From: an uncultured Endomicrobiia bacterium | Lineage (GTDB): Bacteria > Elusimicrobiota > Endomicrobiia > DTEH01 | Assembly: GCA_937936785.1 (NCBI GenBank) | Contig: CALDDQ010000012.1 | Span: 1-64,000 of the forward strand | DNA: 64,000 bases | Reading direction: 5' to 3' | In this document: positions 37,219-51,197 of the stretch, one piece after another | How positions within the stretch are numbered: the stretch's first letter is position 1 | Layout of the letters: every line of letters starts with the position of its first letter | Made by a program: the position numbers and the translations under genes | Notes under the pieces: generated by a model | The model's database searches: none | What the model was told of the DNA's origin: nothing | The model's input: only the letters and a program-made list of their open reading frames with translations

Positions 37219-40200
37219 CTAGTAGGTAATTTCCACTTCAACAGGAATTTTTTTAAATTTTATTTCTGTAGAACTAAAATTCTTCCATTGTTTACCATTA
37301 ATTTTTACTTCTTTAATTGGTTTTGATATTGGTGAAAACAAGATAATATCTCCAGGTTGTTTGAAATTGCCATAAATTCTTGCTTTTACTACATTATCAA
37401 TTTTTTTTAACTCATAGTTTAAAATTCCCCAAACTGTGGGTAAATTTTTTACTGAAACACCATACTTATATTCTAACCATTCATCCTTTAAACCTTTACA
37501 CAAAGTGATGTTTCCATTGTTTTCGTTTTCAATAACAAAAAAACTTCTTACAGAATTTATATAGTCTGATCCAACCCAAGTATGAGGCATGTCACCTATA
37601 AAATATGGGGCATCTTCAATTCTCCACACAATTTCTGCCCAATGATTCCAGTTATAAGGTCTTTGACAAGAAAAAAAATAGTCCAAAATTTTATGTGCTT
37701 TTTCTTTTTGGTTCAAATATATAAAAGACCTTAAATTTCGGTGTTCATAAGGAGTAAAATTTTCACCCCAATTTTTTCCTAAGATCCTCTTCTCTACATC
37801 CTTATAGTAAATATTTAAAGTATTTTCTAATTCCTTTCTTGGCATATAATCAAATTCATCTACAGGATATATTCCGATTGAAATTGAAGTTGCATCAAAA
37901 TCACCAAGCTCAGCACAGCCAGGGATATAACTAATTCCATGTGTCTGCATAGCAAGTTTTATTGATTCGTACAAATCTTTTCTATAATCTAAAACTTCAC
38001 GAGCATATTTATTTTTTAAATCTCTTTCCCCTAAAATCTCCATAATTTTTGTAGCATCCTTTAGGCCTTTTAATGCAAAGAAATTGTCCCAGTAAGAATG
38101 CATAGGTTTTTCGCTATAACCTTCATGGCTAATAGATTCTGGGACCAAACCGTATAAAATTCGTTTTTCTATTGGGCCATTTTTATATTCTGTACTTTTG
38201 CGTTTGTTACGTAATGAAATTATATAATCAGCAACTTTTATAATGTTGGATAAATGTTGTTTAAGAAAGAATTTATCTTTAGTATAGTTATAATATTGCA
38301 TGCACAGGTAAATATATTGTCCATGACTATCATTTTCTGGTACATGTTCTGCACCACGATCATCTACTGCACATGGTACGTGTCCATTTGGGAAAATATA
38401 TTTTGCATACCAATCAATAAATTCTCTCACTTCTTTAGTTAAACCCATTTTTAGTAATGCAGAAGATGTTAAAGAACCATCTCGTATCCATGATCTATTA
38501 TAAGATCTTGATCCGGGTTGTATTCTTGGACCATCTTTGTTTATTAAGATATATGCTAGATTAGATCGTATAGTTCTTGCCAATTTAAGATCTTCTGGAG
38601 GCAGATTAATTTCGAAGTAACTTAATTTAGAATCCCAATAGTTTACACTTTTGTTAAATTTCTCTGTGCCTAGTAAAACTGCTTGGTCGTATGTCATATT
38701 TGATTCATAAGCAATATTTTTTAGTTTGGAATCATATAATGGAATTAAAATAAAAATATCTTTTTCTTCATTTGGTTCTATTTCTAAGATATATTCTAAA
38801 GCAGCACTAGCATATGAAGAAAGATCGTTAATTATTTTGTTTGGAGGAACTTTTCCTTCTTTCAAATATTTTGTTATATCACCAGATGCATATTCTGCCG
38901 CACCAAAGTTTGTTGGTTTAGTTAGTGGTATAATATATTTTTCGTTGTTAACTGTAACAATTTTATCATCATAAGATATTGAACTAACTTTTGCCAACCC
39001 ACCGGTTGTATTTAGAAGTTGCCATGGAGGATTTACTTGAAATGGTCTTATGGCTAGAAATAATTTTCCATCTAATTTTGTGTTTAGATTGTTTTTTATT
39101 TTATACCATGCGATTATTTCAGAGTTATTTATTTCTCCTGAAGGGAAAAATTTTGCTATCAGAGTGAAATCATTATGATCCCACTTGACTAAGGGTATAG
39201 GCAAATATTTTTTTTCTAAGTCTTGTTCTAATTTTACATCTGCCCAGGTAATAAGTTTATTGTTTAAGTATAAAAATGGTTCTATGGTAAAACTTTCTTT
39301 ATCAACTTCCAGCGCTCCTTCTTCATTAACAAGGGATTCTTTAACATCACTGTCAATACCAACAACAGTCCAATAAGATTGTTTGTTTTGTAAATATTTT
39401 GGGTAAAAACCTTTTAAAGAATCTTCAGCTGCAATTTCAAATTTTTTTATTGGTGTAACTTTTTCTTCAACACCTTTTATCTCAATTTCTGATATACCAT
39501 AACCTTTTTGGCCACTACTTTTTTTTAGTTCAATTTTTAGGTATCTGCTTTCTCCATCTTCCACATAAATTCTGTCTCTTCCACCGTCGCTATTTTTTAC
39601 TCTATATATCTTTGTCCAGTTTTGAGCATCGGTAGATGCGAAGACATCATATTCTATCGCATAATCATTCGGGTGCCAATGAATAAATATTCCGCTGTAT
39701 TCTCGTGGTTTACGAAAGTCTATTTTTAACCACTGATTTTCATTTTTATCACTATGCCAATAAGTTTTTTTATTGCCATCAAATAAATTGTCCACAATTT
39801 TTTTGTTAACAGATGTAGATGCAGAGACAATAATTTCATCATCAGGTGATTTTAATCGTATTTCATAAATTGAAAAACCCCATACAGTGCCACGTTTAAT
39901 GCAGTTAATTTTTATGTATTTTACTTTATTCCGTTTTAAAAAAATTTCATCAGTTCCTCCATCGCTATCATCAACAAAATAAACTTTTGTCCAGTTTATG
40001 TTATCTTTTGAGAACAAAATTTCGTACTCTTTTGCATATGCATATTCCCAATCTATTACTAACCCAGAAATTTCTATTTCTTCACCTAAGTCTAATATTA
40101 ACCATTGGTTATCTGAATGTTCGGATGACCAACGAGTATGTTTATCTCCATCAACAACATTTTGTGGTCCAAGTTCTAATTTTTCTATTGAAGAAGAAGT

Positions 40201-40785
40201 GGCTTTTATATTTTTAATTTGTAAAAAATTATCTTTTATTTCTTCAATTTTTAACTCGTCAAAAAAAACTTTACCTTTTCCTCCTGTACCACAAGATATA
40301 GCAAGTTCTATCTTTTCAATTTTTGATAACTTTTCGTTAGGATTAGGACCCCAAGCAAATGTTATATCACGTTTTCTTACAATCATTTTTGTCCACTGAT
40401 CTTGAAATTTGTAATTAGTCCATTTTTTCCAGAAAACATTACCTTCTTTGTCAATTAGTTTAAATTCAACGTTATTATCTGGTATCTCACCTTTTATATT
40501 AAATGTTATCTTAAAGTTTTCTGGTAATTTAAGTGAAACATCTTTTGTTATAACAACGTAACCCATTTTATTAGTAAAATCTATATCTAATCCTAAGTAT
40601 GTACTTTTATCTTCGGTGGTAGTCATCATATTCATTACTACACCATCTGAATTTGTGGGTTTCCATATTGATATTTCATTAAAATCATCCAATATTTTGA
40701 CAGACGAAAAAAGATTAGAAATTATGATAGTTAAAATACAACAAATAAAATTTAATTTCCAAATTAACTTTTTGATTTTTTTCAC
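37219..40785 (-). CDS. Exported discoidin (F5/8 type C, two copies) protein with six-hairpin glycosidase-like C-terminal domain
   Basis: GTG start with GGAGGG upstream; discoidin copies NQWLILDLGEEIEISGLVIDWEYAYAKEYEILFSKDNINWTKVY and NQWLKIDFRKPREYSGIFIHWHPNDYAIEYDVFASTDAQNWTKIY; catalytic-like region SRSYNRSWIRDGSLTSSALLKMG...GAEHVPENDSHGQYIY. Confidence 0.8.
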   Translation of the reverse strand: MKKIKKLIWKLNFICCILTIIISNLFSSVKILDDFNEISIWKPTNSDGVVMNMMTTTEDKSTYLGLDIDFTNKMGYVVITKDVSLKLPENFKITFNIKGEIPDNNVEFKLIDKEGNVFWKKWTNYKFQDQWTKMIVRKRDITFAWGPNPNEKLSKIEKIELAISCGTGGKGKVFFDELKIEEIKDNFLQIKNIKATSSSIEKLELGPQNVVDGDKHTRWSSEHSDNQWLILDLGEEIEISGLVIDWEYAYAKEYEILFSKDNINWTKVYFVDDSDGGTDEIFLKRNKVKYIKINCIKRGTVWGFSIYEIRLKSPDDEIIVSASTSVNKKIVDNLFDGNKKTYWHSDKNENQWLKIDFRKPREYSGIFIHWHPNDYAIEYDVFASTDAQNWTKIYRVKNSDGGRDRIYVEDGESRYLKIELKKSSGQKGYGISEIEIKGVEEKVTPIKKFEIAAEDSLKGFYPKYLQNKQSYWTVVGIDSDVKESLVNEEGALEVDKESFTIEPFLYLNNKLITWADVKLEQDLEKKYLPIPLVKWDHNDFTLIAKFFPSGEINNSEIIAWYKIKNNLNTKLDGKLFLAIRPFQVNPPWQLLNTTGGLAKVSSISYDDKIVTVNNEKYIIPLTKPTNFGAAEYASGDITKYLKEGKVPPNKIINDLSSYASAALEYILEIEPNEEKDIFILIPLYDSKLKNIAYESNMTYDQAVLLGTEKFNKSVNYWDSKLSYFEINLPPEDLKLARTIRSNLAYILINKDGPRIQPGSRSYNRSWIRDGSLTSSALLKMGLTKEVREFIDWYAKYIFPNGHVPCAVDDRGAEHVPENDSHGQYIYLCMQYYNYTKDKFFLKQHLSNIIKVADYIISLRNKRKSTEYKNGPIEKRILYGLVPESISHEGYSEKPMHSYWDNFFALKGLKDATKIMEILGERDLKNKYAREVLDYRKDLYESIKLAMQTHGISYIPGCAELGDFDATSISIGIYPVDEFDYMPRKELENTLNIYYKDVEKRILGKNWGENFTPYEHRNLRSFIYLNQKEKAHKILDYFFSCQRPYNWNHWAEIVWRIEDAPYFIGDMPHTWVGSDYINSVRSFFVIENENNGNITLCKGLKDEWLEYKYGVSVKNLPTVWGILNYELKKIDNVVKARIYGNFKQPGDIILFSPISKPIKEVKINGKQWKNFSSTEIKFKKIPVEVEITY

Positions 40786-45991: not shown

Positions 45992-48900
45992 ATGAAAAAA
46001 TATTTTGTTAGGATAATTTTTTGTTTTAGCACAATTTTTTTATTTTTAGTTCAAGTATATACTTATGAATCAATCCAAACTTTAAATTATAAAACGCAGA
46101 TAGCTTCCTTAGAACAACAAATTTTATCAAAAAATAATGAATTAGAAAATACAATAATTCTTTCAGTAGAAACTTTAGCCAGTGTAAATTCTTTTGCTTT
46201 AACAGCATCGGAAGCAGAACGGTTAGCCAATAATAAAAAGACTGTAATTGCGTTAAAATTTGGGTTAGGATCTTCAGGAGATATTATTCCAGCTAAAGCG
46301 TTGATAGATTTTTTAATAAACAAATTTGTTGAACAATTAAACAATGCATCATTTGATATTCAAATACAATATAAAGTGAAAGATGGAGAAATACCTGAAA
46401 TTGCAAAAACAGCTTTTTTACGTGCAAAACAGTATGCAAGAGAGCATGTAAGTAAAATTCAATCTGAAGAAGCCATTGCAGGTCGTGAATTAGAACAAGG
46501 AACAGATAAATATGTCTATCATGAACTTATAGGTTATGCTAAAGGTCTTTTAGAAGAAAAAAACAAATTTCAGCAGCAATACCAAACTTTAAAAACACAG
46601 ATTACAAAACTAAAATCTGAGTTAGATAACTTAAAAAAATCGCTGTTGGATAAAAAAAATTTGTTAAGCGAACAACAAAAAAGTGATGATTTATATCTGC
46701 AAATGAAAACCGAAATTGAAAAACAAAAAATGCTGGAAGAAGAACGTCAAAGACAATTAGATCAGCAAACATATCAACAGATAAAATCTGGGATAACAGA
46801 TGCTTCAGCAATAGATTTGTCCACAGAAATTCAGGAGATGGAAACTGTTGCTAACAAGTTAAAAAATAATGCTATATCTTATGCAACTTTTGAAACTGCA
46901 TTAAGTTTTATTGTACTTAGAGCAAAAAATAAAACACAAAATGTATCATTGGTTTCACCCAAAGGTCTTTCAGAAAAAGAAGAAGTAGAATGGAAAAAAC
47001 AACAATATAAAATTTTAGATTCTAAACTTAAAACGTTCTTAGAAAGATTAAAAGAGATAGAGAACAGTTTAGAGAAAGAGAAAATTAAACATATAGAAGA
47101 AATAAAAAAAATAGTAGAAGAAGCCAATAAAATTTTTTACAAGGACAACAAAGATGTTTTGTTAGAATATAAAAATCAGTTAGAAACTCAAGTGCCAAAG
47201 TTTGAGAATAGATTATATCAGTCAAAATATACACGATTGGTAGATGATATAGATGAAAGAATAAAAATTTTAAAAGATATGTTAAAAGATTTGCCTAAAG
47301 ATAGAAATGAAACCATGGCAATAAAAGAATATTATAATAATGCAAATAAGAAATATAATGATTTTAGAAAAGTTTTAATTAAAGAATATAACAAGGTGGT
47401 AACTAAAGTTAATGAATATATTAAAAAAAATTTTAATATTTTAAGTTATCCAACAACAATTGGATATTCCACAATAGAATATATAGCAGAAAATGATATA
47501 AAAATTTTTCCTGACAATTATGATGAACTAATAAAGTCTTATGATCAAAAAGAGAGAGAAATAAAAAACGAAATTCAAGAATTAGAAAATATTAGTACAG
47601 ATTTGAAATCTATCAGCGATAAACTAACTTCAACAAATTTAAGGTATTCAAATGTCAGAAAAAATATGGATGATTCCGTATCAACTTTTTTGGGGATAAA
47701 AGATACCATAAAAAATATGGAAGAAAAAATACTCTTGTTATCCAAAGAACGTGATTCGTATGTAAAAGAATTAGAAAAAATTAAAGAGAATTATATCGGA
47801 ATCCAAATTTTAACTTCAATGAAAAAACAGGAATATGGTTCGATACAACATGTTTCTCTCAGGCTTGGGGACATTGCATCTACAGTTTTAGGTTACATAA
47901 AAGAAGTTGATAAATTCATAGATTTTGCAAAAGAAAAAAATGATCCAAAAGTTTATCAGGTAGGCCCTGTGATTTTTAGGTATAAAAAATTTGTTGAAGA
48001 ATTTAAAAAAGAAGAAAATGTTTTGAGGACTGATTTAGAAAAATACTTAGATTTGTTAAAAAAAATTAAAATAGATTTTATAAATGTTTATACTCGTAGT
48101 CCTGAAAGTTTAATCACAGAGCCAAACACATCAAAATATTTTACAAAAAGTAAAATACCGCGTTTTGATAATGATAAATTTTATAAAGAATTAAATTCTG
48201 TATTATCAATCAAGAAAACCGATTTTAACTATTTTAATGATTACAACAGAGATTTTATTGCAGATGAAACAATCACAAATCTACGTAATCAAATTGTTGA
48301 GACAATGAACGAAATTTACAAACTTGTTGGGGAGATAGGGATAAAATTTGAACCTGCAAAAGTAATATCCTTATACATAGACAATCAACCAGTTACTGAA
48401 GGAACTAAATATGATACAATAACAATTTATCGTAAAGAAAGACAAACAGATAATTTAGATATTAAATTAATTGTTGATAGACCACAAAATGTTAAAGATG
48501 TAGAATTAAGTGTTGATGGTGGGATAACATATAAAAGAGGAATTCTTGATTTTAACGGTAAAGAATTTATTGGAAGTGTAGAGTTAGTGCCAAACAAAAC
48601 TGTTGAGATAAAGTTAAAAATTAACCAAAAGTTTGCACAAGATTATGTTGAACACCCACGTTTTGGGAAAGGGTTTACTTATTTTTATTCTACTGAAGAT
48701 CCACAAAAAGATATAGAAGAGATGTTACAAGATTTGATTTTTTCATATGAAACAAAATCCCAATTTAGTTTTATGAAAAATATTTCAGAAAATTTTGTTG
48801 GACAATATGAAAATATGCAAAATGCAATAAAAAAAGATTTTTCTACATATGACAATATAAGAATGAAATTGTATATTGATAACATAGTAATTAGTCCGGG

Positions 48901-49543
48901 TCGCGATACTGCGATGGTAGATGTTCGTTGGGAAAGATCTTGGACAAATGTGCAAACAAACAATCTTGAGGTAGGACAGTTAGGATCTAATAAGATAAAG
49001 CTAGAAAAAGTTCGCGGGAAATGGAAAATATTAGCATACTACGGTACACCAATGTTTGGTACTGCAGTAATTTCGTTAATTGATAATCCAACAGGTGGAA
49101 CTTTTATAAAAACAGATCTAAATAACATTGATACTAACACAAATTTACCAAAATTACCTGTTTATGAAGGACGAAGTTTGAGAAACCACACTGATGGAGG
49201 ATATTTTTTTTCATTTAATAATGACAAGGAATATAGTGTAATGAATGATTCTGTTTTACCGGATTATGAACTTCGTGATTTACAATATAAATTTTCAGAC
49301 AATGAAATTGTTTCATATGATTATGACAAAAGAATTTATGCTGTAGGGATAGGAAATTTGGATTCTGTTATAGAAGCACCTACAAGTGGTTATGAAAAAA
49401 ATGTTCCTGCTATAGTGGGATATGTTTATGTGTTTAAATGTGCAAATGGTAATTATGCCAAGTTTAAAATTACAAGCAAAGATGCTACAAAGATAATTTT
49501 TGATTATGTCTATCAACCAGATGGAAGCAAAAATTTGAGATAG
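45992..49543 (+). CDS. Large exported coiled-coil protein with C-terminal NTF2-like-looking domain, function unknown
   Basis: Signal peptide; long K/E/Q-rich heptad-like stretches (about residues 180-700); C-terminal MLQDLIFSYETKSQFSFMKNISENFVGQYENMQNAIKKDFSTYDNIRMKLYIDNIVISPGRDTAMVDVRWERSW...RGKWKILAYYG. Confidence 0.65.
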   Translation: MKKYFVRIIFCFSTIFLFLVQVYTYESIQTLNYKTQIASLEQQILSKNNELENTIILSVETLASVNSFALTASEAERLANNKKTVIALKFGLGSSGDIIPAKALIDFLINKFVEQLNNASFDIQIQYKVKDGEIPEIAKTAFLRAKQYAREHVSKIQSEEAIAGRELEQGTDKYVYHELIGYAKGLLEEKNKFQQQYQTLKTQITKLKSELDNLKKSLLDKKNLLSEQQKSDDLYLQMKTEIEKQKMLEEERQRQLDQQTYQQIKSGITDASAIDLSTEIQEMETVANKLKNNAISYATFETALSFIVLRAKNKTQNVSLVSPKGLSEKEEVEWKKQQYKILDSKLKTFLERLKEIENSLEKEKIKHIEEIKKIVEEANKIFYKDNKDVLLEYKNQLETQVPKFENRLYQSKYTRLVDDIDERIKILKDMLKDLPKDRNETMAIKEYYNNANKKYNDFRKVLIKEYNKVVTKVNEYIKKNFNILSYPTTIGYSTIEYIAENDIKIFPDNYDELIKSYDQKEREIKNEIQELENISTDLKSISDKLTSTNLRYSNVRKNMDDSVSTFLGIKDTIKNMEEKILLLSKERDSYVKELEKIKENYIGIQILTSMKKQEYGSIQHVSLRLGDIASTVLGYIKEVDKFIDFAKEKNDPKVYQVGPVIFRYKKFVEEFKKEENVLRTDLEKYLDLLKKIKIDFINVYTRSPESLITEPNTSKYFTKSKIPRFDNDKFYKELNSVLSIKKTDFNYFNDYNRDFIADETITNLRNQIVETMNEIYKLVGEIGIKFEPAKVISLYIDNQPVTEGTKYDTITIYRKERQTDNLDIKLIVDRPQNVKDVELSVDGGITYKRGILDFNGKEFIGSVELVPNKTVEIKLKINQKFAQDYVEHPRFGKGFTYFYSTEDPQKDIEEMLQDLIFSYETKSQFSFMKNISENFVGQYENMQNAIKKDFSTYDNIRMKLYIDNIVISPGRDTAMVDVRWERSWTNVQTNNLEVGQLGSNKIKLEKVRGKWKILAYYGTPMFGTAVISLIDNPTGGTFIKTDLNNIDTNTNLPKLPVYEGRSLRNHTDGGYFFSFNNDKEYSVMNDSVLPDYELRDLQYKFSDNEIVSYDYDKRIYAVGIGNLDSVIEAPTSGYEKNVPAIVGYVYVFKCANGNYAKFKITSKDATKIIFDYVYQPDGSKNLR

Positions 49544-49552
49544 AGGGAAAAT

Positions 49553-51142
49553 ATGAACAATTTAAGACAATTAAAAAAAATTTTGGTAAGCTTCATTGTT
49601 ATATTGATATTTAATTATTTAGTTTTTTCTCAATATAGAAAATCTAAAGATGGATTTAGATTTAATTTGGATAGCAGAGTATATACAAATCTAATTTCTG
49701 GTTCTACTGAACAGTCAGTGTTAAAAGAAGGCATTTTCCATGAAGAAGCTTTAATATTAGAATATAATAAAAAATTTATTTCTGGCTTGAATGTAAAATC
49801 CGGAGTTAGTTTTCGTTTTACTAATGATAAACAACTTAGTGGAAATTTACCAGAATTAAGAAATTATTATTTTACAATGTTTGCTGGTGATGAAAGCTAT
49901 TTTTTAAGTTTTGGTAACAATTATGCAAATTATTCAAAGTATGTTTTAGGCCGTAATGTTGAAGGTTTATTAGGAAAGGTTAGGTATGGAAATACACTTT
50001 TTATTCCTGTTTATGGTCAAATAACAAGAGCAGAAAATGATAAAAACTATCAAAGGATAATTTATGGTGTTCGTTCTCAAACAGAATTTAGTAATAAACT
50101 AAGATTTGGTATAAATTATCTAAACACATACGATAATAAAGACAGTGTAAAAACAGACGCATCGATTTTTTCTCAAGAAGAAAATAGTGTGGTTAGTATA
50201 GATGGAAATTTAGATTTTGGAAAACTGTATTTTGAAGGAGAAGTTGCAGGTTCTATATATAACGAACTAAAAAAATCTATTAAAGAAAATGATGTTGCAT
50301 ATAGAATAAAAGGTAAATATAGATATTCCGATTTTAGGGCAGAAGCAGAGTATGAAATTGTAGGAACATCTTTTAGTGCATTATCTGGCTGGGCAATAAA
50401 AGATCGTGTAATAACAAAAGTTCGTTCAGGGTATACATTTTCTCAATGGTTAGATACAGAAGTGGTCTATGAAACGTATCATAATAACTTACAAAATTTT
50501 TTACCTTATAAAGAGATAGCAAGTATTCCGCAAATAAATTTTAATTTTGTGTTTGGGAAAATTTTTGATGCACAGACAAACTATAAAATAAGAAAAGTTT
50601 ATTCTGATGATGCTAACAAAACTATTGATAGAGAAGTTAACACTATTGGTGGAGGAATAAATTTTAAGTTAAAAAAAATTCGGCCATCTGTGAATATAGA
50701 ATGGAACAATAACATTGATCAAAAAAATAATGTTAATAATTATAAAAATTTGTTTACTGAAATTTCTTTAAGGACAACTTTTGGTAATGAAAAAACTTTT
50801 TGGCAATTGTATCCATATTTTGGTTATAGAACAATAACTGACAATTTGGAAATAAATAATAAAAGTGATACAACTACAACAATAATTTTTCGTTTAAACA
50901 CTAGTGCAGGAAAATATTTTGAACTTAATGGTAATTTTTTAAAAATGGTTGCTACAAAAGATATTACAAATAGTAAATCTTTTAGAGACAATATATATTT
51001 TGATATAAAATACAAAATTAAAGGTTCACAAGATAAGATTTTATCTTTAAGTTATACAATAAACGATTGTGAACAACAAACAATTCAGATAGTAAAATAT
51101 TTAGAAAATATTTTTGAAGTAGGGCTGCAGTTAAAATTTTAA
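49553..51142 (+). CDS. Predicted outer membrane beta-barrel protein, function unknown
   Basis: Signal peptide ending FSQ; alternating polar/hydrophobic strands throughout; C-terminal LENIFEVGLQLKF; 9 bp from upstream gene. Confidence 0.6.
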   Translation: MNNLRQLKKILVSFIVILIFNYLVFSQYRKSKDGFRFNLDSRVYTNLISGSTEQSVLKEGIFHEEALILEYNKKFISGLNVKSGVSFRFTNDKQLSGNLPELRNYYFTMFAGDESYFLSFGNNYANYSKYVLGRNVEGLLGKVRYGNTLFIPVYGQITRAENDKNYQRIIYGVRSQTEFSNKLRFGINYLNTYDNKDSVKTDASIFSQEENSVVSIDGNLDFGKLYFEGEVAGSIYNELKKSIKENDVAYRIKGKYRYSDFRAEAEYEIVGTSFSALSGWAIKDRVITKVRSGYTFSQWLDTEVVYETYHNNLQNFLPYKEIASIPQINFNFVFGKIFDAQTNYKIRKVYSDDANKTIDREVNTIGGGINFKLKKIRPSVNIEWNNNIDQKNNVNNYKNLFTEISLRTTFGNEKTFWQLYPYFGYRTITDNLEINNKSDTTTTIIFRLNTSAGKYFELNGNFLKMVATKDITNSKSFRDNIYFDIKYKIKGSQDKILSLSYTINDCEQQTIQIVKYLENIFEVGLQLKF

Positions 51143-51168: not shown

Positions 51169-51197
51169 TTGACATAGTTAGAATAAAATTATAAAAT
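51169..51197 (+). promoter_or_regulatory. Candidate sigma-70-type promoter for DUF4912-GH57
   Basis: TTGACA (51169-51174), 17-nt spacer, TAAAAT (51192-51197). Confidence 0.5.

What the first reader, a model, noticed from the sequence alone, without database searches (positions are those of the whole stretch)
45992..51142. Undescribed two-gene envelope unit: 1183-aa coiled-coil exported protein plus a beta-barrel
The first protein has a signal peptide, very long helical K/E/Q-rich region and a C-terminal beta-rich domain resembling an NTF2-like fold. The second, 9 bp downstream, reads as an outer-membrane beta-barrel. I recognise neither as a named family. A periplasm-spanning helical rod next to an OM barrel suggests an envelope-bridging or export/tethering device. 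It is embedded between glgP and DUF4912-GH57.
Basis: inference. Interest (0 to 1): 0.6.

Follow-up and report, generated by a model that had tools for sequence, protein, structure and literature searches.

The report
Elusimicrobiota outer-membrane barrel operon, fused variant
The two genes are a rearranged, fused version of an undescribed gene set found across part of the bacterial phylum Elusimicrobiota, in which an outer-membrane barrel protein is encoded beside exported proteins that share a common tail but carry interchangeable helical bodies.

Summary
Both genes exist exactly as described. A (45992-49543, 1183 aa) has a signal peptide, a helical body (~25-780), an Ig-like domain, an NTF2-like domain and a C-terminal beta domain weakly resembling HmuY. 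B (49553-51142, 529 aa) reads as an outer-membrane beta-barrel. Neither reaches a curated Pfam or NCBIfam cut-off. The genome belongs to class Endomicrobiia (Elusimicrobiota). The pair is conserved: of 46 type-1 barrel copies in 40 genomes, all have the A module on the same contig, 43 within 700 bp on the same strand. Elsewhere in the phylum the usual form is three genes: B, short A (~415 aa: Ig, NTF2, beta domain), then C (~880-1345 aa: helical body ending in NTF2). The three genomes with long A lack C and have order A-B, so the window looks like a fused, rearranged form. C tails are homologous in 78/78 pairs, bodies in only 19/78; at one locus tails are 73% identical and bodies at shuffled level. 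Best reading: the Ig-NTF2 module docks variable helical bodies to barrel B. Docking, topology and function are inferred. A straight periplasm-spanning rod is unlikely: the helical body is the least conserved part, and as one helix would be ~110 nm long.

The parts
45992..49543 (+). A: 1183-aa exported protein (signal peptide, helical body, Ig-like, NTF2-like, HmuY-like C-terminal domain)
   Evidence: orthologues: G007 40% identical, G010 48-49% over its C-terminal part
45992..46063 (+). signal peptide of A (residues 1-24, cleavage about VYT/YES; orthologue ISA/YES)
   Evidence: sequence and alignment; inference, no signal-peptide program available
46064..48331 (+). helical K/E/Q-rich body, residues 25-780; 12 prolines break it
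   Evidence: periodicity z 8.3-8.5; 36% identity to G007 against 48-52% for the C-terminal domains
48347..48685 (+). Ig-like domain, residues 786-898
   Evidence: Big_13 hit in 12 of 21 homologues; profile hit to a sulfite-oxidase Ig-type domain E 1.5e-5; all-beta in model
48686..49081 (+). NTF2-like domain, residues 899-1030
   Evidence: Foldseek matches to NTF2-like folds; hhalign of the A family to the C family, prob 98.9, E 2.7e-17 over Ig-NTF2
49133..49543 (+). C-terminal beta domain, residues 1048-1183, HmuY-like at its end
   Evidence: PF14064 E 1.9e-4 best among members, below the 27-bit cut-off for the window protein; PDB 8b6a E 1.5e-4, 6eu8 0.016, 3u22 0.047, HmuY-type
49544..49552 (+). 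9-bp gap with Shine-Dalgarno-like GAGGG; A and B probably co-translated
   Evidence: sequence; in G007 and G010 the stop and start overlap by 4 bp
49553..51142 (+). B: 529-aa outer-membrane beta-barrel, type 1
   Evidence: distant relative of the ~650-aa B2 barrels (hhalign prob 97.6, E 4.4e-12)
51169..51197 (+). promoter-like site (11/12) downstream of B, suggesting that DUF4912-GH57 is a separate transcription unit
   Evidence: consensus match only, total number of such sites is at chance level

Best explanation
A and B are the fused, rearranged form of an Elusimicrobiota outer-membrane unit whose usual form is barrel B, adaptor A (Ig, NTF2, small beta domain) and helical protein C (variable body with a conserved C-terminal NTF2 tail). 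B sits in the outer membrane. The Ig-NTF2 module of A and C is the constant docking part that places them at B. The long helical body is an exchangeable passenger, held as a folded helical bundle or array on the periplasmic or outer face. In the window genome adaptor and passenger are one chain (A), translated just before B. Shown: gene content, adjacency, shared module, body replacement, absence of a detectable separate C in genomes with long A. Inferred: docking of the module to B, side of the membrane, and the biological task (envelope or surface scaffold).
For: Type-1 B: 46 places in 40 of 285 genomes, all with the A module on the same contig, 43 within 700 bp on the same strand. Order B-A-C in other families, A-B directly adjacent only in the window genome and the two G007/G010-type genomes. 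Separate C found in 9 of 12 genomes tested and not detected in exactly the three with long A. A and C share the Ig-NTF2 core. Tails homologous in 78/78 C pairs, bodies in 19/78; G206a/G215a tail 73%, body 22.3% against 23.5% for shuffles. One B can lie between two A-C pairs (L101, L102: A1-C1-B-A2-C2). Proteins have signal-peptide-like N-termini; most B proteins end in an aromatic residue typical of barrels.
Against: No physical contact between A and B was tested; the structure models are poor (pLDDT 44 and 34) and no complex could be modelled. The tail could be an oligomerisation domain (as in the CaMKII hub) rather than a docking domain. The window's A body is not visibly related to any C body, so fusion versus independent gain is unresolved; the core tree puts long A between short A and C. 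Bodies may look unrelated partly because helical sequences diverge fast.
Confidence: 0.45

Rival explanations
1. Surface secretion: B is the port through which C or long A is exported and displayed as a surface fibre or adhesin, with the Ig-NTF2-beta tail as its secretion or anchoring signal.
For: Constant C-terminal module with swapped bodies is the layout of secreted passengers; bodies diverge most, as surface parts do; related B2 barrels lie beside giant exported repeat proteins.
Against: Only ordinary signal peptides are seen; B shows no translocon domain hit; no surface evidence.
Confidence: 0.25
2. Ligand capture and uptake: B is a channel and A a binding protein, using the HmuY-like and NTF2 pockets, for a small molecule such as haem or a glycan.
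For: Weak HmuY resemblance; NTF2-like folds often bind ligands (general knowledge); alpha-glucan genes flank the window pair.
Against: HmuY hits stay below cut-off and are absent from most short A proteins; no TonB-receptor hit for the B family; the glucan neighbours are not conserved in most genomes (for example glutamine synthetase in L102), although a GH57 gene does lie downstream in G007; does not explain swapped 900-aa helical bodies.
Confidence: 0.15
3. Periplasmic rod bridging inner membrane or cell wall to the outer-membrane barrel, as the first reader proposed (TolA-like or OmpH-like tether).
For: Long helical body with heptad periodicity beside an outer-membrane protein.
Against: No peptidoglycan-binding or tether family hit; no hydrophobic segment apparent beyond the signal peptide; body broken by prolines and less conserved than the tail; extended length far exceeds a periplasm.
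Confidence: 0.1
4. Unrelated neighbours without a common function.
For: No direct interaction data exist.
Against: Adjacency kept across several families and in both gene orders.
Confidence: 0.03

Closest known systems
HmuY family (PF14064; PDB 8b6a, 6eu8, 3u22)
   Same: The C-terminal end of long A shares the terminal strand motif (YVFKCANGNYAKFKITS...FDYVYQPDGSKNLR).
   Different: Below curated cut-off; seen only in long A and a few relatives; part of a much larger exported protein without an obvious lipobox; partner barrel shows no TonB-dependent receptor hit.
NTF2-like superfamily (CaMKII hub, DUF4440, SnoaL_2)
   Same: Predicted fold of residues 899-1030.
   Different: Exported and preceded by an Ig-like domain in A; the window protein has no sequence-level hit.
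B2 barrels (~650 aa) of Elusimicrobiota
   Same: Homologous barrel.
   Different: B2 has an extra N-terminal Ig-like region and lies with FecR, CARDB or giant exported proteins, and in several genomes with MotA/MotB/FliG-like genes.
Passengers with a conserved C-terminal sorting or docking domain (for example type IX secretion cargo; general knowledge)
   Same: Constant C-terminal module, variable body, dedicated outer-membrane partner.
   Different: No type IX system was identified or searched for systematically, and the tail is an NTF2-like fold; comparison is by layout only.

Membership tests
HmuY (PF14064) | Match above the curated Pfam score (27 bits) | tested here: not met
   15.7 to 20.5 bits for the long A proteins
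HmuY (PF14064) | Haem binding by a surface lipoprotein with a TonB-dependent receptor partner | not testable with these tools
   No obvious lipobox in A; no TonB-receptor hit for the B family; haem binding needs an experiment
NTF2-like superfamily | Alpha+beta cone fold | tested here: met
   Foldseek prob 1.00 to many NTF2-like structures, on a low-confidence model
NTF2-like superfamily | Sequence hit to an NTF2-clan Pfam family at cut-off | tested here: inconclusive
   2 of 21 relatives hit DUF4440/SnoaL_2 (best E 4.3e-5 and 5.1e-4); the window protein does not
Outer-membrane beta-barrel | Signal peptide, repeated amphipathic strands, terminal aromatic residue | tested here: met
   alternation z 3.1
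Outer-membrane beta-barrel | Match to a named barrel family | tested here: not met
   No significant Pfam, NCBIfam or PDB sequence hit for B; single weak hits in relatives
TolA/OmpH-type tether | Family match, or inner-membrane anchor with periplasmic helix | tested here: not met
   No such family hit in Pfam or NCBIfam; only an N-terminal signal-like segment seen in the sequence
Elusimicrobiota B-A-C unit (defined here) | Type-1 barrel next to an Ig-NTF2-beta exported protein | tested here: met
Elusimicrobiota B-A-C unit (defined here) | Separate C gene | tested here: not met
   not detected in the window genome, G007 or G010; its role is presumably in long A

The most novel reading that the evidence does not exclude
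A phylum-specific outer-membrane display or secretion platform in which an NTF2-like tail is the sorting or docking signal and unrelated helical bodies are swapped onto it; the window holds a natural adaptor-passenger fusion.
Probability: 0.3. Interest if true: 0.75.

Novelty: new variant of a known kind. Interest (0 to 1): 0.55.

Why it matters
Little is known about the cell envelope of Elusimicrobiota, and common outer-membrane components (BamBCD, FadL, LptD) are reported missing from Endomicrobiaceae (PMC11257099). A conserved barrel with dedicated exported partners and exchangeable bodies would be a lineage-specific envelope system, and body swapping on a constant tail gives a direct, testable prediction about sorting or docking.

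Tried and rejected
Pfam, NCBIfam and PDB profile searches did not name either protein. SMC hits to the helical body were rejected as coiled-coil composition. The genome-contig scan returned one relative (G010); an alignment including short A could not be used for it. Structure models from two-row alignments were poor; only the Ig-NTF2 part was interpreted. A functional link to glycogen genes was not supported because neighbours differ in most other genomes. Homology of the A body to C bodies was sought and not found. Paper searches for Elusimicrobiota with FliG, or with MotA and gliding, gave nothing relevant.

Full report
The observation. Both ORFs are at the stated coordinates. A (45992-49543) is 1183 aa, B (49553-51142) is 529 aa, 9 bp apart, each with a Shine-Dalgarno sequence and an export-signal-like N-terminus. 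The flanks are as described: an alpha-glucan phosphorylase upstream, DUF4912 and a GH57 protein with branching-enzyme C domain downstream. A promoter-like site after B suggests, weakly, that the DUF4912-GH57 genes are separate.

Anatomy of A. Residues 25-780 are helical, with periodicity at 3.5-3.6 residues far above shuffles (z about 8.4), broken by prolines. After it come an Ig-like domain (786-898), an NTF2-like domain (899-1030) and a C-terminal beta domain. The NTF2 assignment rests on Foldseek matches of a low-confidence model and on DUF4440/SnoaL_2 hits in relatives; the Ig assignment on Big_13 hits in 12 of 21 relatives and a profile match to a sulfite-oxidase domain. The extreme C-terminus resembles HmuY (PDB 8b6a E 1.5e-4; Pfam E down to 1.9e-4) but stays below the family cut-off, so membership is not claimed.

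Anatomy of B. No named family. Successive long strands in a very low-confidence model, a terminal aromatic residue in most of the family, single weak OMP_b-brl and Porin_2 hits, and mostly outer-membrane barrels among weak structural matches support a barrel. It is a distant homologue of ~650-aa barrels in the same phylum.

Pair conservation. A relative's record names the class as Endomicrobiia. In this class 7 of 96 genomes have the A module and each copy found lies beside a barrel. Across 285 Elusimicrobiota genomes the A module is in 41 and B or its relatives in 51. Comparing the listed places, 46 type-1 barrel copies in 40 genomes all have an A module on the same contig, 43 of them within 700 bp on the same strand. 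The three others are a decayed copy in the window's own genome, a copy whose A match is partial (its ORF starts about 120 bp away), and one copy with the listed A match 3.9 kb away. The closest relatives, four genomes of the window's own family, lack the pair, so it is patchy within the class.

The three-gene form. In other families the order is B, short A (about 415 aa, usually beginning KWWIFGK after the signal peptide), then C, an 880-1345 aa exported protein. C ends in the same NTF2-like domain, in several cases with the Ig-like domain before it (hhalign A family against C family prob 98.9, E 2.7e-17). In Endomicrobiaceae-type genomes C starts right after A but is cut by contig ends. A C-profile search finds C in 9 of 12 genomes and not in the window genome, G007 or G010, which are those with long A and order A-B. 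The window therefore seems to hold a form in which adaptor and helical passenger are one protein; whether by fusion with a lost C or by gain of another body is open, since its body matches no C body and the core tree places long A between short A and C.

Constant tail, variable body. Between 13 C proteins, the last 140 residues match in all 78 pairs (E <= 1e-3), the bodies in 19 of 78. At the same locus in two genomes of one genus (G206a, G215a) tails are 73% identical and bodies no more alike than shuffled sequence (22.3% against 23.5%). In the same two genomes the second C pair keeps its body (45%). In window A against G007, the Ig, NTF2 and C-terminal domains are 48-52% identical, the body 36%. 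Two A-C pairs can flank one B.

Interpretation. A constant C-terminal module with exchangeable bodies, encoded with a dedicated barrel, is best explained by the module placing the bodies at the barrel. This step, the side of the membrane and the task are inferred. Secretion to the surface, ligand uptake and a periplasmic tether are rivals; a straight periplasm-spanning rod is unlikely given the extended length and the lower conservation of the body.

Side finding. Relatives of B (B2 barrels) lie in several Elusimicrobiota genomes next to a FliG-like protein, MotA, two MotB-OmpA proteins and a TPR protein. FliG_C is above cut-off in 15 of 96 Endomicrobiia genomes, while the flagellar export protein FlhA is absent from all 16 genomes tested, with controls positive. 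[quoted passage not shown] A flagellum-free motor cluster beside an outer-membrane barrel deserves its own study. The window genome has no FliG hit.

Noticed in passing
L057:7086-15958 (G049), L113, L114, L115, L117, L119: FliF/FliG-like protein, MotA, two MotB-OmpA proteins, TPR protein and a B2 barrel clustered in Elusimicrobiota genomes; FlhA absent from all 16 genomes tested although the controls ring. Possible flagellum-free, ion-driven envelope machine.
   Followed up: partly
L016:5917-8470 (window genome, contig C25, minus strand): Decayed second copy of the pair: broken barrel with stops and an A-like ORF, next to tRNA genes and a serine-recombinase-like ORF.
   Followed up: partly
L120-L123, L126 (G001, G058, G024, G007, G049): A second kind of FliG-like protein (about 600-635 aa) in a different conserved cluster with very large (1500-2100 aa) and about 840-1250 aa proteins; function not examined.
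   Followed up: no
L133 and L134 contig ends; L020, L027, L064 contig ends: Assemblies of several Endomicrobiaceae-type genomes break inside the C gene, which may mean internal repeats in C.
   Followed up: partly
window 37219-40785, minus strand: 1188-aa protein with two F5/8 type C (discoidin) domains, GTG start.
   Followed up: no
L060:25-6735, L063, L058, L113: Giant exported repeat proteins (1500-2240 aa) beside B2 barrels, some with CARDB and FecR proteins.
   Followed up: no
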